From Allosphingosinicella sp. (GTDB taxonomy: Bacteria; Pseudomonadota; Alphaproteobacteria; Sphingomonadales; Sphingomonadaceae), in contig JASLBD010000262.1 of the NCBI GenBank assembly GCA_030146745.1, positions 1 through 13,488 of the forward strand: a stretch of 13,488 bases of DNA, given 5' to 3'. The notes beneath the pieces are model-generated. The model saw nothing but the letters and a program-made list of their open reading frames with translations, searched no databases and was not told the origin of the DNA. Of this stretch, positions 991-12,067 are shown piece after piece (position 1 is the stretch's first letter; every line of letters starts with the position of its first letter). A program made the position numbers and the translations under genes.

Positions 991-1119
991 TTAGTAGTAG
1001 ACGCTGCCGCCGCAACGGCCGCTGCCGCCGCAACGATCGGCATAGACGTCGGTGCTGCCGCCGCAACGGCCGCCGCAACGATCGATCATGCCGGCGCGAA
1101 CCCTGGATTTGATTTTCAT
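991..1119 (-). CDS. RCGG-repeat precursor peptide P13, 42 aa
   Basis: The last gene of the array in transcription order. The leader MKIKSRVRAG is followed by MIDRCGGRCGG, then STDVYAD, RCGGSGRCGG and the tail SVYY. It has four RCGG units, the first two directly abutting (R-C-G-G-R-C-G-G), which is unique in the array. The Shine-Dalgarno AGAGGAAG lies just upstream. It shares the SVYY ending with P6 but differs from its neighbour P12 in length. It is a predicted exported, Cys-rich peptide; the leader and array membership support it, and no known family is recognised. Confidence 0.85.
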   Translation of the reverse strand: MKIKSRVRAGMIDRCGGRCGGSTDVYADRCGGSGRCGGSVYY

Positions 1120-1140
1120 GTTGGCTTCCTCTCATGTTTT

Positions 1141-1153
1141 GCGCGGATTGCGC
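1141..1153 (-). promoter_or_regulatory. Small GCGC stem-loop upstream of P13; type example of an element before 11 of 13 precursors
   Basis: The pattern GCGC, 3-6 nt, GCGC lies about 18-24 nt upstream of the start codon, just ahead of the Shine-Dalgarno. Exact copies are at 1141-1153 (P13), 1656-1668 (P10), 1822-1834 (P9), 1986-1999 (P8), 2198-2211 (P7), 2394-2404 (P6), 2656-2668 (P5), 2928-2939 (P4), 3082-3093 (P3), 3382-3394 (P2) and 3637-3650 (P1, with a UUCG-type loop on the RNA). The copies before P12 and P11 are degenerate. Loop sequences vary while the arms persist, which suggests RNA pairing. It could influence translation initiation or mRNA processing between units; that role is inferred. 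Confidence 0.55.
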
Positions 1154-1158
1154 ATTAT

Positions 1159-1178
1159 CCGGCCAGCCCGGAGGCCGG
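1159..1178 (-). repeat. Post-stop hairpin between P12 and P13
   Basis: Arms CCGGCC (1159-1164) and GGCCGG (1173-1178) close an 8-nt loop, 22 nt after the P12 stop. It is a weaker copy of the GGCC-CGGA-GGCC hairpin family found after most array genes. No U-tract follows. Confidence 0.45.
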
Positions 1179-1199
1179 TCGAATTTCTTTGTCTACGTC

Positions 1200-1292
1200 T
1201 TAGACGTAGTAGGTCTTGCTGCCGCCGCAGCGGGTGCTGCCGCCGCAACGATCGGCGATGATGCCGGCGCGAACCTTGGTCTTGATCTTCAT
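1200..1292 (-). CDS. RCGG-repeat precursor peptide P12, 30 aa
   Basis: Leader MKIKTKVRAG, core IIADRCGGSTRCGGSKTYYV with two RCGG units. The stop codon TAA is at the centre of a perfect 7-bp palindrome (CTACGTC-TAA-GACGTAG on the reverse strand, 1193-1209). The two units are separated by Ser-Thr rather than the single Thr of P8-P11. An AGGAAG ribosome site precedes the ATG. The upstream small GCGC hairpin is degenerate here. Confidence 0.85.
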   Translation of the reverse strand: MKIKTKVRAGIIADRCGGSTRCGGSKTYYV

Positions 1293-1326
1293 GTCAGCTT
1301 CCTCTCATGTTTTGTGCGATAGCGTA

Positions 1327-1358
1327 GTATCCGGCCTGCCCGGAGGCTGGCCGGATAC
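1327..1358 (-). repeat. Post-stop hairpin between P11 and P12
   Basis: Fourteen-base arms with a single mismatch (1327-1340 and 1345-1358) close a CGGA loop, 13 nt after the P11 stop. There is no following U-tract, so it is better read as an RNA 3'-end stabiliser or processing barrier than as an intrinsic terminator. Confidence 0.55.
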
Positions 1359-1371
1359 CTTTGTCTACGAC

Positions 1372-1461
1372 TTAGACGTAGTAGACGGTGCTGCCGCCGC
1401 AGCGGGTGCCGCCGCAACGATCGGAGATGATGCCGGCGCGAACTTTGGTCTTGATCTTCAT
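1372..1461 (-). CDS. RCGG-repeat precursor peptide P11, 29 aa
   Basis: Leader MKIKTKVRAG, core IISDRCGGTRCGGSTVYYV with two RCGG units. The protein is identical to P10, and the 90-nt gene differs from it at a single synonymous base (valine codon 7, GTT here and GTC in P10), so the pair arose by a recent duplication or gene conversion. The upstream ribosome site is AAGGAAG. Confidence 0.87.
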   Translation of the reverse strand: MKIKTKVRAGIISDRCGGTRCGGSTVYYV

Positions 1462-1542
1462 TTTAGCTTCCTTCCACGTTTTACGCTTCACTGCGCAGTA
1501 TCCAGCAGGCCCGGAGGCCGGCCGAATTCCTTTGTCTACGAC

Positions 1543-1632
1543 TTAGACGTAGTAGACGGTGCTGCCGCCGCAGCGGGTGCCGCCGCAACGATCGGAGATG
1601 ATGCCGGCGCGGACTTTGGTCTTGATCTTCAT
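1543..1632 (-). CDS. RCGG-repeat precursor peptide P10, 29 aa
   Basis: Encodes the same 29-residue peptide as P11: leader MKIKTKVRAG and core IISDRCGGTRCGGSTVYYV. It lies 171 bp from P11, with matching stop context and Shine-Dalgarno. Two identical products argue for dosage or very recent expansion rather than diversification at this point of the array. Confidence 0.87.
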   Translation of the reverse strand: MKIKTKVRAGIISDRCGGTRCGGSTVYYV

Positions 1633-1669
1633 TTTAGCTTCCTTTTCATGCTTTTGCGCGATTTGCGCA

Positions 1670-1701
1670 GTATCCGGCCGGCCCGGAGACCGGCCGGATA
1701 C
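1670..1701 (-). repeat. Post-stop hairpin between P9 and P10
   Basis: Twelve-bp perfect arms (1670-1681 and 1690-1701, GTATCCGGCCGG and its complement) with an 8-nt loop, beginning 12 nt after the P9 stop. It directly adjoins the small GCGC stem-loop (1655-1669) that precedes P10, so the whole spacer is two stacked hairpins. Confidence 0.6.
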
Positions 1702-1713
1702 CTTGTCTACGTC

Positions 1714-1800
1714 TTAGACGGCGTAGACGGTGCTGCCGCCGCAGCGGGTGCCGCCGCAACGAGTGACATAGCCAGCGCGGATTTTGGTCTTGATCTTCAT
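1714..1800 (-). CDS. RCGG-repeat precursor peptide P9, 28 aa
   Basis: Leader MKIKTKIRAG (Ile at position 7), core YVTRCGGTRCGGSTVYAV with two RCGG units. It belongs with P3 and P8 to the subgroup whose core starts Tyr-Val-Thr directly before the first Arg-Cys. A 12-bp perfect stem-loop (1670-1701) lies 12 nt after its stop. Confidence 0.87.
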   Translation of the reverse strand: MKIKTKIRAGYVTRCGGTRCGGSTVYAV

Positions 1801-1840
1801 TTTAGCTTCCTCTCATGTTTTGCGCTTCATGCGCAGTATC

Positions 1841-1862
1841 CGGCCGGCCCGGAGACCGGCCG
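1841..1862 (-). repeat. Post-stop hairpin between P8 and P9
   Basis: Seven-bp arms (1841-1847 and 1856-1862) with an 8-nt loop, the same family as the 1670-1701 hairpin and similarly placed after the P8 stop and before the P9 GCGC element. Confidence 0.5.
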
Positions 1863-1877
1863 AATTCCGTTACCTAC

Positions 1878-1964
1878 TCAGACGAGGTAGGTGGTGCTGC
1901 CGCCGCAGCGGGTGCCGCCGCAACGAGTGACGTAGCCGGCGCGAACTTTGGTCTTGATCTTCAT
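1878..1964 (-). CDS. RCGG-repeat precursor peptide P8, 28 aa
   Basis: Leader MKIKTKVRAG, core YVTRCGGTRCGGSTTYLV with two RCGG units. It uses TGA, whereas most members use TAA. It differs from P3 only in the last two residues (LV for KL), although six other copies lie between them or beside them, suggesting shuffling of units within the array. Confidence 0.87.
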   Translation of the reverse strand: MKIKTKVRAGYVTRCGGTRCGGSTTYLV

Positions 1965-2005
1965 TTTAGCTTCCTTCCACGTTTTGCGCTTCATTGCGCA
2001 TTATC

Positions 2006-2027
2006 CGGCCGGCCCGGAGGCCGGCCG
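2006..2027 (-). repeat. Post-stop hairpin between P7 and P8
   Basis: Nine-bp perfect arms (CGGCCGGCC at 2006-2014 and its complement at 2019-2027) with a CGGA loop, located 17 nt after the P7 stop. No U-tract follows. Confidence 0.55.
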
Positions 2028-2044
2028 AATTCCTCGATTACGAC

Positions 2045-2176
2045 TTAGACGGCGTAGACCGTGCCGCCGCAACGGTCATAAGTGCCGCCGCAACGAGTGC
2101 TGCCGCCGCAACGGTCGTAGGTGCCGCCGCAACGATCGGCGAGACGGCCGGCGCGAACATTGGATTTGATTTTCAT
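2045..2176 (-). CDS. RCGG-repeat precursor peptide P7, 43 aa
   Basis: The longest member. The leader is MKIKSNVRAG, followed by RLAD and four RCGG units separated by TYD, ST and TYD, then the tail TVYAV. The repeated R-C-G-G-T-Y-D block suggests internal unit duplication within the core. The Ser-Asn in the leader (positions 5-6) is shared in part with P5, P6 and P13. Ribosome site AAAGGAAG. Confidence 0.86.
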   Translation of the reverse strand: MKIKSNVRAGRLADRCGGTYDRCGGSTRCGGTYDRCGGTVYAV

Positions 2177-2255
2177 TCTGGCTTCCTTTCAGATTTTGCG
2201 CTTCATCGCGCAATATCCCGCCGATCCGAAGACCGGCTGAATATTTAGCTGCGGC

Positions 2256-2375
2256 TTAGTAGTAGACGCTGCCGCCGCAACGGGTCGATCCGCCGCAACG
2301 ATCCGTACCGCCGCAACGGGTGGTGGTGTCGTCGGTCCGGAGGAGGCCAGCGCGAACATTGGTCCTGATTTTCAT
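2256..2375 (-). CDS. RCGG-repeat precursor peptide P6, 39 aa
   Basis: Leader MKIRTNVRAG (the only Arg at position 4). The core opens with an unusual LLRTDDTTT segment, then RCGGTDRCGGSTRCGG and the tail SVYY. It has three RCGG units, one written with alternative codons (TCG-GGA-GGC context), so its core is slightly diverged at DNA level. Ribosome site AAGGAAG. Confidence 0.85.
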   Translation of the reverse strand: MKIRTNVRAGLLRTDDTTTRCGGTDRCGGSTRCGGSVYY

Positions 2376-2444
2376 GTTGCTTCCTTCACGTTTGCGCATT
2401 GCGCGCTATTCGTCGGACCCATATCCGCCGAATTCTGGGGGTCG

Positions 2445-2501
2445 GGCCTCCCGCTTTGGCCGCCCGGCTGAGCCGGACATTGCGCCAGTGGGCGGGAGGC
2501 C
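2445..2501 (-). repeat. Large inverted repeat in the P5-P6 spacer
   Basis: Perfect 10-bp arms GGCCTCCCGC (2445-2454) and GCGGGAGGCC (2492-2501) enclose a smaller CCGGC-TGA-GCCGG stem. The neighbouring P4-P5 spacer (about 2716-2766) has a clearly related sequence with arms CCGCCCG (2724-2730) and CGGGCGG (2754-2760) and an inner CCGGC-TTGA-GCCGG, so the spacer was duplicated together with a gene. Confidence 0.5.
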
Positions 2502-2512
2502 GTCCTGTAGGC

Positions 2513-2635
2513 TTAGACTTCGTAGGTGGTGATCCCGCCGCAACGGGTGCAGCCGCCGCAACGATCGATCACGGCGCCGCAACGATCGGTGGTAGAAGCG
2601 CAACGGCCGGCACGGATGTTGGTCTTGATCTTCAT
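2513..2635 (-). CDS. Divergent RCGG-repeat precursor peptide P5, 40 aa, five cysteines
   Basis: Leader MKIKTNIRAG, then RCASTTDRCGAVID and RCGGCTRCGGITTYEV. Two of the four Arg-Cys units are degenerate (RCAS, RCGA) and one unit carries an extra Cys after Gly-Gly (RCGGC), giving five cysteines, the most in the array. The core begins directly with Arg-Cys after the leader Ala-Gly. The Shine-Dalgarno context (AAGGAATTATC) differs from the other copies. It could be a decaying copy or a specialised variant; the leader and reading frame are intact. Confidence 0.82.
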   Translation of the reverse strand: MKIKTNIRAGRCASTTDRCGAVIDRCGGCTRCGGITTYEV

Positions 2636-2779
2636 GATAATTCCTTCCACGTCCTGCGCAGGTTGCGCATCACCCGGCAGAGATCCGCCGAATCTTGTCG
2701 GTCGCGCCCCGTGCCCTGGTCTGCCGCCCGGCTTGAGCCGGAGATGGAGCCAGCGGGCGGGAGGCCCGGCCCAAAGCCG

Positions 2780-2899
2780 TCAGGGGATATCGTACCCGCT
2801 GTCGAAGTAGGTGCTGCCGCCGCAACGGTCGGTGCCGCCGCAACGCGTGCCTCCGCAACGGGTGGTGTAGCCGGCGCGAACCTTGGTCTTGATTTTCAT
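2780..2899 (-). CDS. RCGG-repeat precursor peptide P4, 39 aa
   Basis: Leader MKIKTKVRAG, core YTTRCGGTRCGGTDRCGG, tail STYFDSGYDIP, stop TGA. The first 18 core residues are identical to those of P1, but the tails are unrelated, so the conserved Cys block and the variable acidic/aromatic tail seem to evolve separately. Ribosome site GAGGAAG. Confidence 0.86.
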   Translation of the reverse strand: MKIKTKVRAGYTTRCGGTRCGGTDRCGGSTYFDSGYDIP

Positions 2900-2974
2900 G
2901 TTGGCTTCCTCTCACGCTCTCATGTCTGCGCGTGTGCGCAAGATCGGACCGACTTCGTCGGCCCGACCCGTTCA

Positions 2975-3061
2975 TTAGAGCTTGTAGGTCGTCGAACCGC
3001 CGCAGCGGGTGCCGCCGCAGCGAGTGACGTAGCCAGCGCGGACTTTGGTCTTGATCTTCAT
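2975..3061 (-). CDS. RCGG-repeat precursor peptide P3, 28 aa
   Basis: Leader MKIKTKVRAG, core YVTRCGGTRCGGSTTYKL with two RCGG units. It is the minimal form of the family, near-identical to P8. Ribosome site AAGGAAG. The frame and leader conservation distinguish it from the longer overlapping open frames on both strands, which are by-products of the GC-rich repeats. Confidence 0.87.
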   Translation of the reverse strand: MKIKTKVRAGYVTRCGGTRCGGSTTYKL

Positions 3062-3158
3062 GTTGGCTTCCTTCCACGTTTGCGCATTCGCGCTTCCTCC
3101 GGAGGACCTCGTGTCCGCCGAAGCTTCGTTGGCCGGCACAGCGTGTCGGCCGAGCCGC

Positions 3159-3201
3159 TTCGTCAGCCTCCCCGAAGCTTGCGCTTCGCCCGGCTGACGA
3201 A
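3159..3201 (-). repeat. Nested inverted repeat in the P2-P3 spacer
   Basis: Outer arms TTCGTCAGCC (3159-3168) and GGCTGACGAA (3192-3201) are perfect over 10 bp; an inner stem CGAAGC (3173-3178) / GCTTCG (3183-3188) closes a 4-nt loop. This 173-bp spacer is the longest in the array and holds no open frame with a plausible ribosome site that I can support. Confidence 0.5.
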
Positions 3202-3234
3202 TGAGAGAGAATCCGGGCCCCTTCCGGATGCTGC

Positions 3235-3360
3235 TCAGACGGCGTAGACGCTGTCGTATTCGTAATAGCGGGTGGTGCCGCCGCAGCGGGTGCTGCCGCC
3301 GCAACGGGTAGTGCCGCCGCAACGGTCGTAGCCGGCGCGAATCTTGCTCTTGATCTTCAT
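3235..3360 (-). CDS. RCGG-repeat precursor peptide P2, 41 aa
   Basis: Leader MKIKSKIRAG, core YDRCGGTTRCGGSTRCGG with three units, then a long Tyr-rich tail TTRYYEYDSVYAV (four Tyr in 13 residues), stop TGA. It is the most tyrosine-rich tail in the array, together with that of P1. Ribosome site AAGGAAG. Confidence 0.86.
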   Translation of the reverse strand: MKIKSKIRAGYDRCGGTTRCGGSTRCGGTTRYYEYDSVYAV

Positions 3361-3454
3361 CTTGGCTTCCTTCCACGTCTTGCGCCTGAAGCGCTTGTTT
3401 CGGCGAGAACTTCGTCAGCCTTCGAAATCTGCGCTTCGTTCGACTGAGAAGCGA

Positions 3455-3486
3455 AAGGCCGTCCGGGGCACTCCCCGGACGGCCTT
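3455..3486 (-). terminator. 14-bp perfect hairpin after P1, possible attenuator
   Basis: Arms AAGGCCGTCCGGGG (3455-3468) and its exact complement (3473-3486) close a 4-nt loop, 9 nt after the P1 stop. On the minus-strand RNA it is followed by only three U residues, a weak intrinsic-terminator signature. As the strongest stem in the array and the first after the maturase-like gene and P1, it could set the ratio of upstream to downstream message or protect the 3' end. Confidence 0.5.
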
Positions 3487-3495
3487 CAGCCGATT

Positions 3496-3618
3496 TTAGT
3501 ATGAGGCATCGAGATAGTAGCGGTCGTCGGTGGCGCCGCCGCAACGATCGGTGCCGCCGCAGCGAGTGCCGCCGCAACGAGTAGTGTAACCGGCGCGGAC
3601 TTTGGTCTTGATCTTCAT
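3496..3618 (-). CDS. RCGG-repeat precursor peptide P1, 40 aa
   Basis: First gene of the array, starting 33 nt after the stop of the 642-residue protein and probably on its transcript. The leader MKIKTKVRAG is followed by YTTRCGGTRCGGTDRCGG and the acidic/aromatic tail ATDDRYYLDASY. The Shine-Dalgarno GAGGAAG (3624-3630) is 5 nt before the ATG. A 14-bp perfect hairpin lies 9 nt after its stop and could limit read-through to the remaining genes. Confidence 0.87.
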   Translation of the reverse strand: MKIKTKVRAGYTTRCGGTRCGGTDRCGGATDDRYYLDASY

Positions 3619-3651
3619 TCTGGCTTCCTCACGTTTGCGCCCGAAGGCGCG

Positions 3652-5580
3652 TCATCCGGCAGACAGTTCGTCCAACGGAATTTCTCTCGGCGCCGCCGCA
3701 ACGATCCTCACGCCTTCGGTGATGGTGACCTGGTCGACCGTGACGTCGATCGTGACCCCCAGCACCTTCGCGATGTCGTCGATGAGGAACGGCACCTCTT
3801 TTCTCTCGTCTTTGGAATCGACGCTCTTGTCGAGGCCGACATAAGTGGCCAGGTCGCGCCCCATGAACGTCCGCTTGGGCTTTTCGCGCCCGAGCAGATT
3901 GTTGATCCGGTCCTGCACGTCCAGCGAGACCCGCAGGGCCACCTGGACGAAACTGATGAACCGGCCCAGCCAGTCCGCCAGCTCGGCGAAGAGCTCGTCT
4001 CCGTCCGGAAGATCGTGGAAGTGGCGGGCGAAGATCGCCCTGAGCTCTTCCATCGTCTTTTCCGGCAGCGGCGGAACGTTTTCGTATTGCTCCTCGAGCG
4101 ACGGTTCGGGGAACTTGCCCGTCAGTCCGAAGCCGCACTTCTGGTACATGTCGTTATAGGCGATCAGGCGGCTCTTCCGGAACGCGTCCGATTTGAGCCA
4201 GCCCACATCCTGGGTGACTTCGTGGATCTTCTGGGCGCGCTCGCGCAGGCGCGTCAGGGTCGGCGAGTCGGACTTGGTCCAGCCGTTGATGATCTCCCTC
4301 AGCTGGGCATGCCCGGCCGTCGAGGTCGGGAAGAGCGAGAAGACGGACCCGAAAGCCTGCAATCCGAGCAAGCCGTAGTCCACAGCCTTGTCGACCTCGT
4401 CGAGAGCCGCCTGCACTTCCGGATGGATTGCCTCAGGCCAGCCGCCCTTGGGATCGGCGCGGTCGAGGACGACCGCAAGGAAATCGTCGACCATCGCCGG
4501 CGGGCCGGCGCAGACGCCCTGCCCGGTATGGAACGAGAAGTTGCGCTCGGCATATTGATGCGCCTCATGCCCGGTCATCGGGGTCGTTCCCGAGCGGGTC
4601 GGCTCGCCGAACGGAACGAACAGCATGTGGTGCATCAGCATCCGCAAGCCGTCGGTCAGCCGGAAGGCCGACGAAAGCGCGGGGTGAAGCTTGCCGTTCT
4701 CGACCCGGTTCTCGACCCGCATCACCTGATAGGTGGGAAGCGCCAGAACGCAGACCGTCATCCGCTCGATGTCGCCGACGGTCCAGCCGCGCTCGTCGAC
4801 CTCGGGGAAGCGCGCCCGGTACGCGTCGCTGACCCGCCGGACGATCACCATCATGTGCCGCCACTGGTCGCGCATGATCCTGAGCGCCGTCACGTTCATC
4901 GGAAGATCGGGCTGGTAGCGGGTCCCCGAATAGGTACAGGTCCGCCACAGGGTGGGGCGATCGAGCCGCATCGCCGGCGGGAAGACGTTGGCCTCGCCGA
5001 CCTGCCGGTTGTCCTGGTCGAGATACATGTGAGCGACCCGGAAGATCGGGATGAAGAGCTCGACATAGCCGGTCTCGAGCGGCTTGCCCGAGATCAGGGT
5101 CATGATCTCTTCGCAATCGTCCCACGTCTTGCCGTAGTCGATCCGCGCCGGCATCAGCAGCGTTTCGCGCTCCTCGTGGCGCAGCGCCGCCGGAACATCG
5201 GCAACCTCGTCCGCATATTGGAGGACGTCGGCTTCGATCAGATCCTCGAGCATCTGCCGCACGCGAGGCCATTCGTAATCGCCCCACTGGAGAGCGTCGC
5301 CGGCCCGGAAGCGCGACTGCTTGCACAGCGTCTCGCCGAAGGAATAGAAAGCGGGATCGTCGAACGCGATTTCTTTGTCGCGATAATAGACCCGCAGCTC
5401 CCGCGGAGTCTCCTCGTCTTCCCAATATTGAGTGAAGGCGCCTTTCGAGAGCGGAAAGATCAGCTCATCGTCCTGATGGAGGGCGCGGACGCTGCCAGTA
5501 TCATCCTCTTCGGATGGTACGCTGCTAAATGCCGTATTTGCGGAACCAGCTGCCGAAGCTTCATTGGAAAGCGTAGACAT
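3652..5580 (-). CDS. Unrecognised 642-aa protein, candidate peptide-modifying or processing factor
   Basis: I do not recognise the family. It is soluble-looking and mostly helical, with no signal peptide or membrane segment. Residues about 35-125 (AFYSFGETLCKQ to WPRVRQMLEDLIEADVLQY) read like a PqqD/RRE-type winged helix, the fold many RiPP enzymes use to bind leader peptides; this is a weak visual resemblance. The middle has a His-rich stretch: HHM at 317-319, HEAH at 338-341 and H351 within GHEAHQYAERNFSFHTGQG, plausible metal or haem ligands but unproven. Six cysteines (86, 156, 215, 277, 357, 482) are scattered with no CxxxCxxC or Cys-pair cluster. I chose the ATG at 5580 because a GGAG lies 12 nt upstream; an in-frame TTG at 5703 would add 41 residues with no better ribosome site. 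Its stop is 33 nt before P1, which ties it to the peptides. It could be a maturase, chaperone or regulator. Confidence 0.8.
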   Translation of the reverse strand: MSTLSNEASAAGSANTAFSSVPSEEDDTGSVRALHQDDELIFPLSKGAFTQYWEDEETPRELRVYYRDKEIAFDDPAFYSFGETLCKQSRFRAGDALQWGDYEWPRVRQMLEDLIEADVLQYADEVADVPAALRHEERETLLMPARIDYGKTWDDCEEIMTLISGKPLETGYVELFIPIFRVAHMYLDQDNRQVGEANVFPPAMRLDRPTLWRTCTYSGTRYQPDLPMNVTALRIMRDQWRHMMVIVRRVSDAYRARFPEVDERGWTVGDIERMTVCVLALPTYQVMRVENRVENGKLHPALSSAFRLTDGLRMLMHHMLFVPFGEPTRSGTTPMTGHEAHQYAERNFSFHTGQGVCAGPPAMVDDFLAVVLDRADPKGGWPEAIHPEVQAALDEVDKAVDYGLLGLQAFGSVFSLFPTSTAGHAQLREIINGWTKSDSPTLTRLRERAQKIHEVTQDVGWLKSDAFRKSRLIAYNDMYQKCGFGLTGKFPEPSLEEQYENVPPLPEKTMEELRAIFARHFHDLPDGDELFAELADWLGRFISFVQVALRVSLDVQDRINNLLGREKPKRTFMGRDLATYVGLDKSVDSKDERKEVPFLIDDIAKVLGVTIDVTVDQVTITEGVRIVAAAPREIPLDELSAG

Positions 5581-5994: not shown

Positions 5995-7173
5995 TTGACG
6001 TTTCAGTTTTCCAAGACAACCCAATCCCTGGCGCTCGACTCACCGCGGATCGTCCTGATCTCCCTGGCGCTCGCGGGGATTGCGCTCGTCGCGTGGCTGC
6101 TCTGGTTCGGCTTCGGCAACGTCACCGTCTACGAAGTCTCACGCCAGGCGCGGCTCCAGGTCGGCAGCGCTCCGCGGGAAATCTCGTCCTTGCTGGCCGG
6201 CCGCTTGACCGAGGCGCATATCGTGATCGGGCAGAAGGTTCGTGCCGGGGACGTGCTGGTCGAGCTCGATTCGACCCGGCAGCGGTTGCGTCTCGCCGAA
6301 GCCCAGGCGCGGCTCCCTCTCTACCCGGCGCGGATCGCGTCGCTGCGGAAGGAGATCGCCTATCTCAGCCGGGTGATGGAGAACGAGCGGCGGTCCACGC
6401 AGGCCGCCGTACGGGCCGCCAACGCCCGGCTGCAGGGCGCCGATGCGGCGTCCAGGTTCGCGAACGACAGCGCGGCCCGGATAAGGAACGATGCGGCGAC
6501 CGGAGGGTCCGCCACCGTCGACGCCGTCCGCGCCGCCGCGGATGCCCGCAAGGCCGAATCGGAGCGGGATATTTCGGCCGCTGAACTGGCCAGGCTCGGA
6601 GTCGACGCGAGCGTCACCGCCGATCAGACGCGCGTCCAGATGGAGAGGCTGACCCGCGACCTGCTGGCGACCCAGTCGGAAGCGGCAGCCACGCACGAGT
6701 CGATCCAGCAGCTTCGCCTCGAGGTAGCCAATCATCAGATCCGGGCGCCGGTCTCCGGCGTCGTCGGCGAGATGCGCGCGCTCAGCGCCGGAGCCTATGT
6801 CGCTCCCGGGCAGAAGCTGGCGACGATCATTCCGCAGGGCGACCTCCTGATCGTTGCCGATTTCGATCCGACCACCGCGCTCGGCCGGATCCGGCCGGGA
6901 CAGACGGCCCGCTTCCGGCTCGAAGGATTTCCCTGGGTCCAGTTCGGAACGATCGAGGCCACCGCCATCCGGGTCGCCGGCGAAATCCGCGACCAGTCGC
7001 TGCGCGCCGAATTCCGGATCAGGCGGGACGCGACCCGGGGCCTTGTCCTTCGCCACGGTCTCCCCGGACGGATCGAGGTCAGGGTGGAGACGGTGTCGCC
7101 GGCCAGGCTGCTGCTGCGATCGGCCGGACGGATGACGGAAGGCCCGGAGCCTCGGGCCGGCGCCGCGCGATGA
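5995..7173 (+). CDS. HlyD-family periplasmic adaptor of a type I / peptide exporter
   Basis: I place the start at TTG 5995 because GGGGAG (5983-5988) sits 6 nt upstream; an ATG at 5890 would add 35 residues without a ribosome site. The 392-residue product has a short cytoplasmic tail, one membrane helix (about 17-41, ending in WLLWFGFGNV), a half-lipoyl segment (GRLTEAHIVIGQKVRAGDVL, about 69-88), an Ala/Arg-rich coiled-coil hairpin (about 94-245), a second lipoyl half (IRAPVSGVVGEM and a following PGQKLATIIPQGD), then a beta-barrel domain. This is the adaptor that links inner-membrane ABC exporters to a TolC channel; the N-terminal layout is like the secretion proteins of NHLM-type bacteriocin clusters. 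The stop overlaps the next start as ATGA, indicating translational coupling with the peptidase transporter. Confidence 0.9.
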   Translation: MTFQFSKTTQSLALDSPRIVLISLALAGIALVAWLLWFGFGNVTVYEVSRQARLQVGSAPREISSLLAGRLTEAHIVIGQKVRAGDVLVELDSTRQRLRLAEAQARLPLYPARIASLRKEIAYLSRVMENERRSTQAAVRAANARLQGADAASRFANDSAARIRNDAATGGSATVDAVRAAADARKAESERDISAAELARLGVDASVTADQTRVQMERLTRDLLATQSEAAATHESIQQLRLEVANHQIRAPVSGVVGEMRALSAGAYVAPGQKLATIIPQGDLLIVADFDPTTALGRIRPGQTARFRLEGFPWVQFGTIEATAIRVAGEIRDQSLRAEFRIRRDATRGLVLRHGLPGRIEVRVETVSPARLLLRSAGRMTEGPEPRAGAAR

Positions 7174-9887
7174 GCCAGGTCGAGGACAAGCCGAAGGAGC
7201 GCAGCTTCTTCGCGGTCGAGGTCGTCCAGACGTCGTCGATGGATTGCGGGCCGGCGGCTTTGAAATGCCTGCTCGAAGGCTATCATGTCCCGATCAGCTT
7301 CGGCCGCCTGCGCGAAGCCTGCCAGACCGACGTCGACGGGACCTCCATCGACACGATCGAGGAGATCGCCACGGACCTGGGCCTGGTGGCGGAGCAGGCC
7401 TTGGTGCCGATCGATCACGTCACTCTCGACAGCGCCGGCATGCTTCCGGCGATCGTGGTCGTGAACCGGGGCGCGGCGCTCCACTTCGTGGTGGTATGGC
7501 GCCGCCACGGCCGCTGGCTCCAGGTCATGGATCCCGCCGTCGGCCGCCGCTGGGTCGGCCTTCGCCAGTTCAAGCAGGAGATCCACGCCCACGGGCAAAC
7601 GGTCGAGATCGCCGACTGGCGAAGCTGGGCGGCCACCGGCGACTTTCTGGACCCGCTCCGGGAGCGCCTGCGACTCATCGGCGCGGGGCCGGCGCTCGTC
7701 GAGGAGCTCGTCGCGGAGGCCGTGGCCGATCCGGGCTGGCACCCGCTCGGCGCGCTGGATGCGAGCACGCGGCTCGTTCAGTCGCTCATCGACAACGGCG
7801 GCATTCGCCCCGGCGGCGAAGCGGCGGGCGTGCTTCGCGGCCTGATTCGCGAGGCGTCGGAAGGTCACGCCGCCGGGCGGACGGAGACGCTCATCCCCAA
7901 GATTTTCTGGTCGGTGAGCGAAGACCAGCCGCCGGGCGTCGCCTCGCCCGGGACGCTCAGGGTCGCCGGCGCGGTCGTGCTCGGCGTCTCCGGACTGAGG
8001 TCGAGCGACGCCGGGGCGGCCGAGGAAGGAAGACCGCTCTCGCTCGAGCTTTCGGCGGCGCTTTCCGAAAAGGCGGTGCCGCCGCTCGCGGCCTTGTGGA
8101 AGATGCTGCGCGAGGACGGCCTGCTCGCGCCGCTTGCGCTGATCCTCGCCGGAGCCTTCGCGGTGAGCGCGACGATGATCGAGGCGCTGCTGTTTCGCGG
8201 CCTCTTCGACATATCCGCGCAACTCGCCTTGCCGAGCCAGCGACTGTTCGCCGCGATCGGGTTGCTCATCTTCGCGACGATCCTGCTCGCGATCGAATAT
8301 GCGACCGGGCTCGGCACCTTGCGCTGGGGCCGAAAGCTCGAGGCGCGGCTGCGCATGGCGCTCCTGGCGAAGCTGCCGCGCCTCAACGACCGCTATTTCC
8401 ACAGCCGCCCGATCTCGGACATGGCCGATCGCAATCACAATATTCAGACGGTGCGCGGAGTTCCGGGCCTCGGCCTTCGGCTGATCCAGTCGGTGCTCGA
8501 ACTGGCGATCACGTTCGCGGGAGTGCTCATCCTCGCGCCGGGCAGCTGGCTGCTGGCGTCATTGCTGGCGGTGATAGCGGTCAGCTTCCCGTTCACCACC
8601 CAGCATCTGCTCAACGAGCGAGACCTGCGAGCGCGCAATCACGCGGGAGCGCTCAACAGCTTCTATCTCGACGCCATGCTCGGCCTCGCGCCGGTGCGGG
8701 CCCATCGCGCCGAGCGCAGCGTCCAGGGCCAGCACGAAAGCCTGCTGGTCGAATGGTACAAGTCGCTTCGAGGCCTGATCAACCTCACCCTGGCGACCGA
8801 CACGGTGCAGGCGATTATCACAACCGCCGTGGTCGGCGCGATGCTCCTGATGCATTTCTTCAGCGCCGAGCGAGTCACCGGATCCGATCTGCTGCTCGTC
8901 TACTGGACCCTCAAGCTGCCGGCGCTCGGCGCTCAGATCGCCCGGCTGATCCATCAATATCCGGCCCAGCGGAACGTCCTTTCGCGACTGCTGGAGCCGC
9001 TTTCGGCGCCCGAAGACCTCGAGCTGACCGAAGAGGAGCGGGCCGCGATTGCGACCCGGCAAAAAGGGCCGGCGTCGAAGGGCATCGCGCTCGAGTTCCA
9101 CGACGGAAGCGTTCTCGCCGCGGGCCACACCATCCTCCAGTCGGTCGACCTGTCCATCACTCCGGGCGAGCATGTCGCCATCGTCGGCATGTCGGGCGCG
9201 GGCAAATCGTCCCTGCTGGGCGTGCTGCTGGGCTGGCACCGGCTGGCCACCGGCCATCTCCTCATCGACGGCAAGCGCGCCCAGGGCCGCGACATCGAAG
9301 CGATGCGCCACGAAACCGCGTGGGTCGATCCGGCCATCCAGATCTGGAACCGCTCGCTGCTCGACAACCTGACTTACGCTTCGGACGACGATGCGGCCCT
9401 CGCCGTCGGCGACGTCATCGCCGCCGCACGGCTGCGCGGAGTCACGCAGAAGCTCCCGCAAGGGCTGCAGACCTTCCTGGGCGAGGGCGGCGGACTGTTG
9501 TCCGGCGGCGAAGGCCAGCGCGTCCGGCTGGCGCGCGCCCTGCTCAGCCCGACCACCCGCCTCGCCCTGCTCGACGAACCTTTTCGAGGCATGGACCGGA
9601 CCCAGCGCCGCGCCCTCCTCGCCGAGGCGCGGGAGTGGTGGAGATCGGTCACCTTGCTGTGCGTCACCCACGACGTCGCCGAGACCATGGCCTTCGACCG
9701 GGTCCTGGTCGTGGAGGACGGCCGGATCATCGAGGACGGCGCCCCGCGGAGCCTGATGGCGCGCCAGTCACGCTATCGCGATCTGATCGATGCCGAGGCG
9801 GAGGTCGGCGAGTCTCTCTGGAAAGGCGATTTCTGGAGGCGCCTGTCCCTGGTCGACGGACGATTGAAGGCGAGCGAGAGCCGCTGA
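7170..9887 (+). CDS. C39 peptidase-containing ABC exporter (PCAT), 905 aa
   Basis: Peptidase-containing ABC transporters cleave leader peptides after Gly-Gly-type sites and export the cargo. Residues 1-150 form a C39 domain with all expected residues: Gln20 (oxyanion), Cys26 in S-S-M-D-C-G-P-A-A, His105 in L-H-F-V-V-V, Asp121 in V-M-D-P. Residues about 155-315 are an extra linker, making the protein longer than the usual 700-750; I cannot assign this part a fold. Membrane helices follow (about 318-600). The nucleotide-binding domain has Walker A GMSGAGKS (673-680), signature LSGGE (777-781), Walker B LALLDEP (798-804) and H-loop His834. The Q-loop reads W-V-D-P-A-I-Q, lacking the usual Gln. 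The ATG overlaps the HlyD stop (ATGA) and the stop overlaps the next ATG by one base. It should trim the RCGG peptides after the leader R-A-G. Confidence 0.93.
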   Translation: MSQVEDKPKERSFFAVEVVQTSSMDCGPAALKCLLEGYHVPISFGRLREACQTDVDGTSIDTIEEIATDLGLVAEQALVPIDHVTLDSAGMLPAIVVVNRGAALHFVVVWRRHGRWLQVMDPAVGRRWVGLRQFKQEIHAHGQTVEIADWRSWAATGDFLDPLRERLRLIGAGPALVEELVAEAVADPGWHPLGALDASTRLVQSLIDNGGIRPGGEAAGVLRGLIREASEGHAAGRTETLIPKIFWSVSEDQPPGVASPGTLRVAGAVVLGVSGLRSSDAGAAEEGRPLSLELSAALSEKAVPPLAALWKMLREDGLLAPLALILAGAFAVSATMIEALLFRGLFDISAQLALPSQRLFAAIGLLIFATILLAIEYATGLGTLRWGRKLEARLRMALLAKLPRLNDRYFHSRPISDMADRNHNIQTVRGVPGLGLRLIQSVLELAITFAGVLILAPGSWLLASLLAVIAVSFPFTTQHLLNERDLRARNHAGALNSFYLDAMLGLAPVRAHRAERSVQGQHESLLVEWYKSLRGLINLTLATDTVQAIITTAVVGAMLLMHFFSAERVTGSDLLLVYWTLKLPALGAQIARLIHQYPAQRNVLSRLLEPLSAPEDLELTEEERAAIATRQKGPASKGIALEFHDGSVLAAGHTILQSVDLSITPGEHVAIVGMSGAGKSSLLGVLLGWHRLATGHLLIDGKRAQGRDIEAMRHETAWVDPAIQIWNRSLLDNLTYASDDDAALAVGDVIAAARLRGVTQKLPQGLQTFLGEGGGLLSGGEGQRVRLARALLSPTTRLALLDEPFRGMDRTQRRALLAEAREWWRSVTLLCVTHDVAETMAFDRVLVVEDGRIIEDGAPRSLMARQSRYRDLIDAEAEVGESLWKGDFWRRLSLVDGRLKASESR

Positions 9888-12067
9888 TGGCCGACCTCGG
9901 AATCGAAAAGCTCGCGGCCGAGCCCGATCCCCGGATGATGGAGGCGATGCGCCCGTTCCTCTGGCCGTTCGCCCGGATCGGCGAAGGGATCGAGGAGCTT
10001 TCGCGTCGCGCGGGCCTGCGCCCGAAGAGCTCGTCCGATTCGGTAAGGGTGCCGGCCGCGATCGCCGCCGGCAACACGCGCAACCTGTCTGACTGGTTCG
10101 ATTGGGCGGCCGAGCATCTCGGGATCGAGGCCACTATGATCCAGACTCCGGTGTCCGAGATGCCCGACCTGCTCAGGGCCGGCGTTCCGGCGATTTTCCC
10201 GAATGGAATGTACGAGGCTCCGGGAGTCCTGCTTCTGGTGGGATGGCGGCGCGGCCGGCCGCTGATGCTGGCCCCCGATCTGCGGGTCCGTCCCTGCGAC
10301 CCGGAGCATCTTCGAGGAATGATTTGCTGGCCGCGCGAGGGTCCGCTGATCCCGGAGATCACCCGGCTGGTTCGAGCGACGGGCATCGGCCCCGCGCGCG
10401 AGCGGCAGGTCCGTTCCGCAATGCTTCGCGAGCAGCTCGCCCAGTGGCAGGTCGAGCGCATCTGGGTGCTTCGTCTGCCGCCCTCGGCGAGCTTCTGGAA
10501 GCAGCTGTCGCACATCGGCGCCTTCAGGAAGGTCGCGGCGATGATGGGCATTTTCGCGGCGAGCTACGTCGCGGAGATCGCCGGCTGGGCGCTGATCGGC
10601 TCGGCCGCGCTGGGCGGAAACTTCGACCCCGGCCTGTTCGTGGCCTGGCTTCTGCTCATGGCGACTATGATCCCGCTGGGAACCCTGGGAGGATGGTGGG
10701 CGGCGACCCTGGCGCTGGATGCGGGGCGAATCCTCAAGGCCCGGCTGCTTGCCGGAGCGCTTCGGATGTCGTCGGACAGCATCAAGCGGCAAGGCGTCGG
10801 CCAACTGCTCAGCCGTGTCGTCGAATCGCAGGCGCTCGAGTCGCTGTCGCTCAACGGCGGCATGTCGCTGCTGCGGTCGCTTCTGGCGCTCGGCTTCGCG
10901 GCGTGGATCCTGAGCCAGGGAGTCGCTCCGGCCACCCATCTCCTCCTGCTCGGCGGGTGGACTCTGCTCGCCGTCGTGCTCAGCTGGAATTTCTTCCGCA
11001 AGCTGCGCAGGTGGACGATGACCCGCCTCGACATGACCCACGAGCTGATCGAGGTGATGGTCGGGCATCGAACGCGCCTCGCGCAGGAACCGCCGCAGCG
11101 CAGCAACGGCGGCGAAGACAGCGCGCTTCAGAACTACCTCAATGTTTCCGGCATGATGGACTGGACGGCGGTGACGACCACTCTTGGAGTGTCGTCGGGC
11201 TGGGTCATCGTAGGGCTGATCGGGCTGGTCCCGGCCTTCGTCGGCAATCTGGAAGTGTCCTCGACCGCGATCGCGATCAGCCTGGGGGGGATATTGTTCG
11301 CCCAGCGCGCCTTCTCCGGGATCTCCGAAGGCCTCTCCGCCGCTGGCCGAGCCTGGGTCGCATGGGCGCAAGTGGCGCCGATGTTCCACGCGGCCCGCAA
11401 CAAGACCTCCTCCAAGGCCTACATCACGCTCGAGCAGCTGGAGAACGAGGCGATCCGCATGCCGCTGATCGACGCCCAGGCCCTGTCCTTCGCCTATCCT
11501 TCGAGCAACGAGACCGTCATCGAAGCCACCGACCTCCTCATCGCCCATGGCGACCGGATCTTGCTCGAAGGCTCTTCGGGCGGGGGCAAATCGACGCTGG
11601 CGGGGCTTCTCACGGGGCTCAATACGCCCAAATCGGGCCTGTTGCTGCTCAACGGCCTCGACCGCCACACGCTGGGCGACGATTGGCACCGGCTCGCCAC
11701 CTCGGCGCCGCAGTTTCACGAGAACCACATCCTCTCCGGCTCGGTCGCGTTCAACCTGCTGATGGGAAAGCAATGGCCGCCGCCCGTCGTGGACGTCGCG
11801 GAGGCCCAGACGCTTTGCGAGGAGCTCGGCCTCGGTCCTCTGATCGCCCGAATGCCGGGCGGGCTGAACCAATATGTCGGCGAGACCGGATGGCAGCTTT
11901 CGCACGGCGAGCGCAGCCGCATCTTTCTGGCCCGGGCGCTCCTTCAGGGCGCCCATCTGACCGTGCTCGACGAGAGCTTCGCGGCACTCGACCCCGAGAC
12001 TCTGGCCCTTTGCCTCGATTGCAGCCTCAAGCGCGCGAGAACGCTGATGGTCATTGCTCACCCGTGA
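9887..12067 (+). CDS. Second ABC exporter with degenerate C39-like N-terminal domain, 726 aa
   Basis: The start overlaps the preceding stop (TGATG). Residues about 55-150 follow the C39 layout (LGIEATMI..., then GVPAIF, VLLLVGW and PLMLAPD) but have no Cys at the active-site position and no catalytic His, so it resembles the C39-like domains that bind substrate without cutting. Helices occupy about 212-480. The nucleotide-binding domain has Walker A EGSSGGGKST (561-570), Q-loop Gln609, variant signature LSHGE (671-675), Walker B LTVLDESF with Asp695-Glu696, and His725 as H-loop. The protein ends two residues later (A-H-P-stop), missing the 20-40 residues that usually follow; the bases after the stop do not restore homology in this frame. 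It probably pairs with the peptidase transporter as a heterodimer, similar to NHLM-type systems. Confidence 0.9.
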   Translation: MADLGIEKLAAEPDPRMMEAMRPFLWPFARIGEGIEELSRRAGLRPKSSSDSVRVPAAIAAGNTRNLSDWFDWAAEHLGIEATMIQTPVSEMPDLLRAGVPAIFPNGMYEAPGVLLLVGWRRGRPLMLAPDLRVRPCDPEHLRGMICWPREGPLIPEITRLVRATGIGPARERQVRSAMLREQLAQWQVERIWVLRLPPSASFWKQLSHIGAFRKVAAMMGIFAASYVAEIAGWALIGSAALGGNFDPGLFVAWLLLMATMIPLGTLGGWWAATLALDAGRILKARLLAGALRMSSDSIKRQGVGQLLSRVVESQALESLSLNGGMSLLRSLLALGFAAWILSQGVAPATHLLLLGGWTLLAVVLSWNFFRKLRRWTMTRLDMTHELIEVMVGHRTRLAQEPPQRSNGGEDSALQNYLNVSGMMDWTAVTTTLGVSSGWVIVGLIGLVPAFVGNLEVSSTAIAISLGGILFAQRAFSGISEGLSAAGRAWVAWAQVAPMFHAARNKTSSKAYITLEQLENEAIRMPLIDAQALSFAYPSSNETVIEATDLLIAHGDRILLEGSSGGGKSTLAGLLTGLNTPKSGLLLLNGLDRHTLGDDWHRLATSAPQFHENHILSGSVAFNLLMGKQWPPPVVDVAEAQTLCEELGLGPLIARMPGGLNQYVGETGWQLSHGERSRIFLARALLQGAHLTVLDESFAALDPETLALCLDCSLKRARTLMVIAHP

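What the first reader, a model, noticed from the sequence alone, without database searches (positions are those of the whole stretch)
991..3618. Undescribed family: thirteen tandem RCGG-repeat precursor peptides
Seen directly: 13 short genes with individual ribosome sites, a near-invariant ten-residue leader ending R-A-G, and cores built from 2-4 R-C-G-G units with variable aromatic tails. Known: multi-copy precursor arrays next to C39-ABC/HlyD/TolC exporters are typical of exported RiPPs. Inference: this is a new RiPP-like or Cys-rich secreted peptide family. I do not recognise the core motif from any named class. Repeated Cys-Gly-Gly would suit metal binding, thioether or disulfide chemistry.
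Basis: partly seen in the sequence, partly recalled or inferred. Interest (0 to 1): 0.93.

Follow-up and report, generated by a model that had tools for sequence, protein, structure and literature searches.

The report
Leader-guided RCxG cysteine peptide family
Thirteen tandem genes encode tiny peptides built from Arg-Cys-Gly-Gly units, next to a peptide exporter and a large protein of no known family that is predicted to modify the cysteines before the peptides would be secreted; relatives with the same leader, most with a single Arg-Cys-x-Gly motif, occur across Proteobacteria, so this is likely a new class of bacterial peptide natural product.

Summary
Confirmed: 13 minus-strand ORFs (991-3618), each with its own ribosome site, a near-invariant ten-residue leader ending R-A-G, and 36 Arg-Cys units (34 exact RCGG). 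The RCGG array is an amplified form of a wider family. A leader-only scan found such peptides in all 18 related loci whose contig continues past the 642-aa gene (22 loci in all); all 18 have a Cys core, 14 with R-C-x-G. Of the 120 best profile hits, all end in RC[VATPL]G-x and 119 have one core Cys, so internal disulfides cannot be the shared purpose. The 642-aa protein (M642) matches no Pfam or NCBIfam family; its N-domain is modelled RRE-like, its helical domain matched no solved fold convincingly. In 251 genomes of one order, 7 of 7 with M642 have a precursor, against 2 of 244 without. 11 of 12 M642 genomes encode the C39-ABC exporter. Leader residue 8 is Arg in 27 of 27 Cys-core precursors and Lys/Gln in 5 of 5 Cys-free ones of M642 genomes: a candidate address code. 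Best reading: a new RiPP class, cysteines modified by M642, then exported. Chemistry and activity are unknown.

The parts
991..1119 (-). precursor 13 (4 RCGG units)
1200..1292 (-). precursor 12 (2 RCGG)
1372..1461 (-). precursor 11 (2 RCGG; identical peptide to precursor 10)
1543..1632 (-). precursor 10 (2 RCGG)
1714..1800 (-). precursor 9 (2 RCGG)
1878..1964 (-). precursor 8 (2 RCGG)
2045..2176 (-). precursor 7 (4 RCGG)
2256..2375 (-). precursor 6 (3 RCGG)
2513..2635 (-). precursor 5 (RCAS, RCGA and 2 RCGG; 5 Cys)
2780..2899 (-). precursor 4 (3 RCGG)
2975..3061 (-). precursor 3 (2 RCGG)
3235..3360 (-). precursor 2 (3 RCGG)
3496..3618 (-). precursor 1 (3 RCGG), nearest to the 642-aa gene
1120..3495 (-). 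12 spacers between precursors (75-173 nt); their consensus has two predicted hairpins upstream of the ribosome site
   Evidence: 11 consensus pairs, 3 with compensatory changes
3652..5580 (-). 642-aa protein 'M642', predicted leader-binding maturase
   Evidence: no Pfam/NCBIfam match; 770 homologues
5203..5472 (-). M642 residues 37-126, predicted RRE-like winged helix
3886..5133 (-). M642 residues 150-565, all-helical domain with invariant H184, D188, R192, E196, C215, R346, C357
1..912 (-). outer-membrane efflux (TolC-type) protein, cut by the window end
   Evidence: PF02321
5890..7173 (+). HlyD-type adaptor (longest frame; by comparison with relatives the start is more likely the in-frame TTG at 5995)
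   Evidence: PF13437; relatives
7170..9887 (+). C39-peptidase/ABC exporter half; C39 at residues 18-137, Cys26/His105/Asp121
   Evidence: PF03412, PF00005; triad kept in 18 of 18 relatives read
9887..12067 (+). second ABC half-transporter without a C39 match
   Evidence: PF00005

Best explanation
The 13 genes encode precursors of a likely new class of RiPP, in which the adjacent 642-aa protein M642 is predicted to bind the ten-residue RAG leader through an RRE-like domain and to modify the cysteine of each R-C-x-G unit, after which the C39-ABC/HlyD/TolC exporter would cut off the leader and secrete the core. Shown here: the genes, the conserved leader, the R-C-x-G core, the conserved M642-precursor order, the co-occurrence with M642 and the exporter, and an intact C39 catalytic triad. 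Predicted by structure modelling: the RRE-like domain and an all-helical domain without a convincing match among solved structures. Inferred: that the helical domain is an enzyme; that it acts on the Cys; that leader Arg8 addresses a precursor to M642 while Lys/Gln8 precursors use the same exporter unmodified; that cleavage is after A-G. The 13-fold array would make a combinatorial set of multi-site peptides from one maturase. Most likely role, inferred only from the export and the variable cores: a secreted agent of competition or of metal/redox scavenging.
Confidence: 0.6

Rival explanations
1. The peptides are secreted unmodified as thiol or metal-binding peptides (or class II microcin-like bacteriocins). 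M642 is a leader-binding chaperone, escort or immunity protein, not a maturase.
For: No recognised enzyme family for M642; related precursors with Cys-free His/Asp-rich cores lie beside the exporter in loci without M642; C39 exporters also serve class II bacteriocins (passages of PMC6363468).
Against: M642 has a long list of invariant polar residues (H, D, R, E, two Cys), as active sites do, and goes with Arg8/Cys-core precursors; a plain chaperone would not obviously need this.
Confidence: 0.22
2. A metallophore system that works like methanobactin: Cys-based metal ligands are installed on a short exported peptide, with a di-heme MauG-type partner in some clusters.
For: CCP_MauG proteins (PF03150) lie next to M642 or the exporter in several loci (L014, L022, L049, L047; by reading or tblastn also L011, L021, L050, L051). 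Some methanobactin operons carry a di-heme peroxidase (MbnH) gene, of unclear relevance there (passages of PMC3621798).
Against: No DUF692/MbnB hit among the window proteins scanned; methanobactin operons have MATE exporters and/or TonB importers, here C39-ABC; one Cys per core in 119 of 120 listed relatives.
Confidence: 0.1
3. RCGG itself is the C39 cleavage site: the Gly-Gly of each unit is cut and the array peptides are concatemers of short signals.
For: In the window every core has at least two Cys-Gly-Gly units, and C39 peptidases cut after Gly-Gly.
Against: The widespread form has R-C-[VATPL]-G, without Gly-Gly at that place, in 120 of 120 listed hits; known sites sit at the end of a leader of defined register.
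Confidence: 0.05
4. Chance or low-complexity ORFs in a GC-rich minus strand.
For: The region is GC-rich and repetitive; overlapping long ORFs exist on the other strand.
Against: 0 leader matches in 1000 Markov simulations against 13 observed, synonymous variation under fixed residues, and conservation across distant bacteria.
Confidence: 0.01

Closest known systems
NHLP/Nif11-leader RiPP export systems (TIGR03794/03796/03797)
   Same: C39-ABC plus a second ABC plus HlyD exporter with a set of small precursors
   Different: Scores far below the curated cut-offs (184 vs 853, 98 vs 709, 51 vs 156 bits); leader of ten residues ending A-G instead of a long NHLP/Nif11 leader (leader length recalled); different maturase
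RRE-containing RiPP maturases (McbB, TruD, ThcOx, PbtF, TbiB1)
   Same: Predicted N-terminal winged helix of the same arrangement
   Different: Catalytic part is an all-helical domain without a recognised fold; no YcaO, ThiF, nitroreductase or transglutaminase-like domain found in M642
Methanobactin (MbnA/MbnB/MbnC)
   Same: Short precursor with C-terminal Cys; some clusters with a MauG-type di-heme protein
   Different: No MbnB/DUF692 match in the window proteins scanned, C39-ABC instead of MATE export, mostly single-Cys core
Heterocycloanthracin/sonorensin bacteriocins (TIGR03601)
   Same: Cys- and Gly-rich core; weak match (E 0.06) to two of the three precursors scanned
   Different: 13.9-14.0 bits against a cut-off of 35; no YcaO found
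Double-glycine (C39) microcins and bacteriocins
   Same: Small leader peptides with an intact C39-ABC/HlyD/TolC exporter
   Different: A-G end, ten-residue leader, dedicated M642 partner

Membership tests
RiPP (general) | genetically encoded precursor with conserved leader and variable core | tested here: met
RiPP (general) | dedicated modifying enzyme encoded with the precursor | tested here: inconclusive
   M642 co-occurs (7 of 7 vs 2 of 244), RRE-like domain predicted, activity unknown
RiPP (general) | post-translationally modified product | not testable with these tools
   needs mass spectrometry
RRE-containing maturases | PqqD-like winged helix that binds the leader | tested here: inconclusive
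C39-peptidase ABC exporter (PF03412) | C39 domain above gathering score with Cys-His-Asp | tested here: met
   73.7 bits vs 22; C26/H105/D121 in window and 18 of 18 relatives
Double-glycine leader peptides | leader ending GG/GA/GS with upstream Leu(-12), Glu(-8), Leu(-7) | tested here: not met
   leader of ten residues ending A-G; definition from passages of PMC6363468
NHLP/NHLM export system | TIGR03796/03797/03794 above cut-off | tested here: not met
   184.2/853.3, 98/709.4, 51.1/156.2 bits
Methanobactin | MbnB (DUF692, PF05114) next to MbnA | tested here: not met
   no PF05114 hit among the window proteins scanned
YcaO-type azole peptides (incl. TIGR03601) | YcaO cyclodehydratase; precursor above TIGR03601 cut-off | tested here: not met
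   no YcaO hit among the window proteins scanned; 14 bits vs 35
Lanthipeptide | dehydratase/cyclase and Ser/Thr-Cys pairs | tested here: not met
   no lanthipeptide enzyme hit in the window proteins scanned; Cys core without Ser/Thr in L019
Sacti-/ranthipeptide | radical SAM enzyme | tested here: not met
   no radical SAM hit in the window proteins scanned

The most novel reading that the evidence does not exclude
M642 founds a new maturase fold, possibly heme- or metal-dependent (a number of relatives begin with a Cys-Pro-x-His stretch and some clusters add a MauG-type di-heme protein), that carries out an undescribed cysteine modification at R-C-x-G. One leader residue (Arg8 against Lys8) decides which peptides of a shared exporter are modified. 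The window's organism amplified this into a 13-gene, 36-site peptide library.
Probability: 0.3. Interest if true: 0.92.

Novelty: new variant of a known kind. Interest (0 to 1): 0.78.

Why it matters
It points to a RiPP class with a candidate maturase family absent from Pfam and NCBIfam (770 homologues at E 1e-3), built around a ten-residue leader and a four-residue core motif. That is simple enough to test by co-expression. The Arg8/Lys8 split offers a natural test of how one exporter could serve modified and unmodified peptides, and the single-Cys cores narrow the chemistry to something other than internal disulfides.

Tried and rejected

Weak points of my counts: the 120 hits are the best-scoring of 806 and were found with a profile that already contained R-C-x-G, so they describe the main form, not all forms; the less biased numbers are the leader-only ones. 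The patterns used favour well-conserved M642s. The 27 Cys-core leaders include one identical peptide from two closely related genomes, and I sorted the peptides by core and by genome for that call. HlyD and the C39-ABC were counted by tblastn in loci of unequal length; 6 of 22 loci show no HlyD, at least one of them (L021) because the contig ends. Frequency differs by order: 1 of 296, 7 of 251, 1 of 399, each including the genome used as centre.
Full report
Observation. The minus strand from 3618 to 991 carries 13 closed ORFs of 28-43 residues, all starting with ATG behind a GGAAG-type site. Leader positions M1-K2-I3 and R8-A9-G10 are invariant while synonymous codons vary, so selection acts on the peptide. 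The leader pattern appears 13 times against a maximum of 0 in 1000 Markov simulations. Cores contain 36 Arg-Cys units, 34 of them RCGG; 36 of 37 Cys follow Arg, and every tail has at least one Tyr.

Surroundings. Upstream on the same strand is a 642-aa protein (M642; 3652-5580) with no Pfam or NCBIfam match at E up to 1. Downstream on the same strand is a TolC-type protein cut by the window end (PF02321). Divergently transcribed are HlyD, a C39-ABC half (PF03412) and a second ABC half, then an orphan 179-aa ORF; an SGL-domain gene follows on the minus strand. M642 has 770 homologues at E 1e-3, of which the best 120 were listed; the close ones that bear an organism name are Allosphingosinicella, Sphingomonadales or Alphaproteobacteria records. 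Sequence search with one precursor gave 43 RCGG-type precursors at E up to 1, one of them from this window; the four that bear an organism name are Allosphingosinicella or Sphingomonadales.

The wider family. A profile scan of one genome per species gave 22 loci with M642 relatives (33-70% identical) from Alpha-, Beta- and Gammaproteobacteria and one Nitrospira record. HlyD lies in the same locus in 16 of 22 and the C39-ABC in 15 of 22; several of the rest are short contigs. A scan with the leader pattern alone, blind to the core, found 25 peptides in 18 loci; the four loci without one end inside M642 or within 90 bases of its match. In 17 of the 18 a precursor lies within 500 bases after M642, as in the window; in L016 one lies shortly before M642 and one about 9 kb away. 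All 18 loci have a Cys core, 16 with R-C, 14 with R-C-x-G. Per peptide the numbers are 23, 21 and 18 of 25, against shuffled-core maxima of 8 (R-C) and 5 (R-C-x-G) in 20,000 rounds. A profile of these peptides found 806 proteins at E up to 1; the 120 listed all end in R-C-[VATPL]-G plus one residue, 110 of them with S before R-C, and 119 have exactly one core Cys. So the RCGG array is best read as a multiplied form of a motif that elsewhere mostly occurs once, each unit being one modification or ligand site.

Co-occurrence. In 251 genomes of one order, 7 have M642 and 9 have a precursor match at E 0.01. All 7 M642 genomes are among the 9 (7 of 7 against 2 of 244; Fisher p 3e-12, not corrected for kinship). 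The two exceptions are informative. G420 has the exporter with two Cys-free His/Asp-rich cores and, about 10 kb off, one core with R-C-V-S. G366 has the exporter with three cores ending in NRCETFRR-like sequence. Neither has an M642 match, none of the six cores has R-C-x-G, and all six leaders have Lys8. The C39-ABC is found in 11 of 12 M642 genomes searched, in four of them on another contig or over 1 Mb from M642; in G006 the separate exporter locus carries its own Cys-free, Lys8 precursors. In M642 genomes leader residue 8 is Arg in 27 of 27 Cys-core precursors and Lys or Gln in 5 of 5 Cys-free ones. All 43 proteins and all 120 listed also have Arg8. I read residue 8 as a likely address code for M642; this is a prediction.

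Mechanism. Shown: leader, core, gene order, co-occurrence, C39 triad (Cys26, His105, Asp121 in the window and in 18 of 18 relatives). Predicted: RRE-like leader binding. Inferred: M642 modifies the Cys of R-C-x-G, the modified peptide is exported by the C39-ABC/ABC/HlyD/TolC complex, and the leader is removed after Ala-Gly. The A-G end and ten-residue length differ from classic double-glycine leaders (passages of PMC6363468), so the cleavage site is the least certain step. A thioether to Ser/Thr cannot be general (the L019 core has none), and no YcaO, radical SAM, lanthipeptide or DUF692 enzyme was found among the window proteins scanned.

Verdict. It fits the RiPP kind, but of the named classes tested it met the definition of none. 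Interest is high because the candidate maturase family is absent from the curated libraries searched and the system is simple to test; it is limited by the lack of any direct evidence on chemistry or activity.

Noticed in passing
L047 9077-9338, L052 8023-8112, L057 6945-7293, L016 9634-9738: Cys-free, His/Asp/Gly-rich cores (e.g. KHGADD...GHK) behind a Lys8 version of the same leader, beside the exporter or elsewhere; a second peptide class that seems to share the exporter without M642.
   Followed up: partly
L014 7717-9933, L022 9764-11995, L049 8408-10648, L047 803-2503 (also L011, L021, L050, L051): MauG/CCP-type di-heme proteins (PF03150 in the four scanned; the other four by reading or tblastn) next to M642 or the exporter in part of the family.
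   Followed up: partly
L003 3820-5868, L009 3544-5587: Histidine kinase and response regulator (LuxR-type in L009) between HlyD and M642, suggesting sensed regulation.
   Followed up: partly
L002 11836-11994, L008 11871-12047, L013 4656-4778: Cores that consist of one R-C-[ST]-G running into a stretch of about 12 to 30 glycines.
   Followed up: no
window 1120-3495, minus strand: The consensus of the 12 spacers has two hairpins before the ribosome site; 3 of 11 pairs show compensatory change, possibly mRNA processing or stability elements.
   Followed up: partly
window 3629-3706, minus strand: A second frame over the 3' end of the M642 gene reads D-R-C-G-G-A; coincidence or trace of an overprinted precursor.
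   Followed up: no
window 9887-12067: The second ABC half has an N-terminal extension with no C39 match and no M-D-C-G-P-type motif.
   Followed up: partly
L005 12162-12485: Only a fragment of the second ABC half is left beside M642, and no C39-ABC was found at E 1e-100 in that genome (G005): decayed cluster or incomplete assembly.
   Followed up: partly
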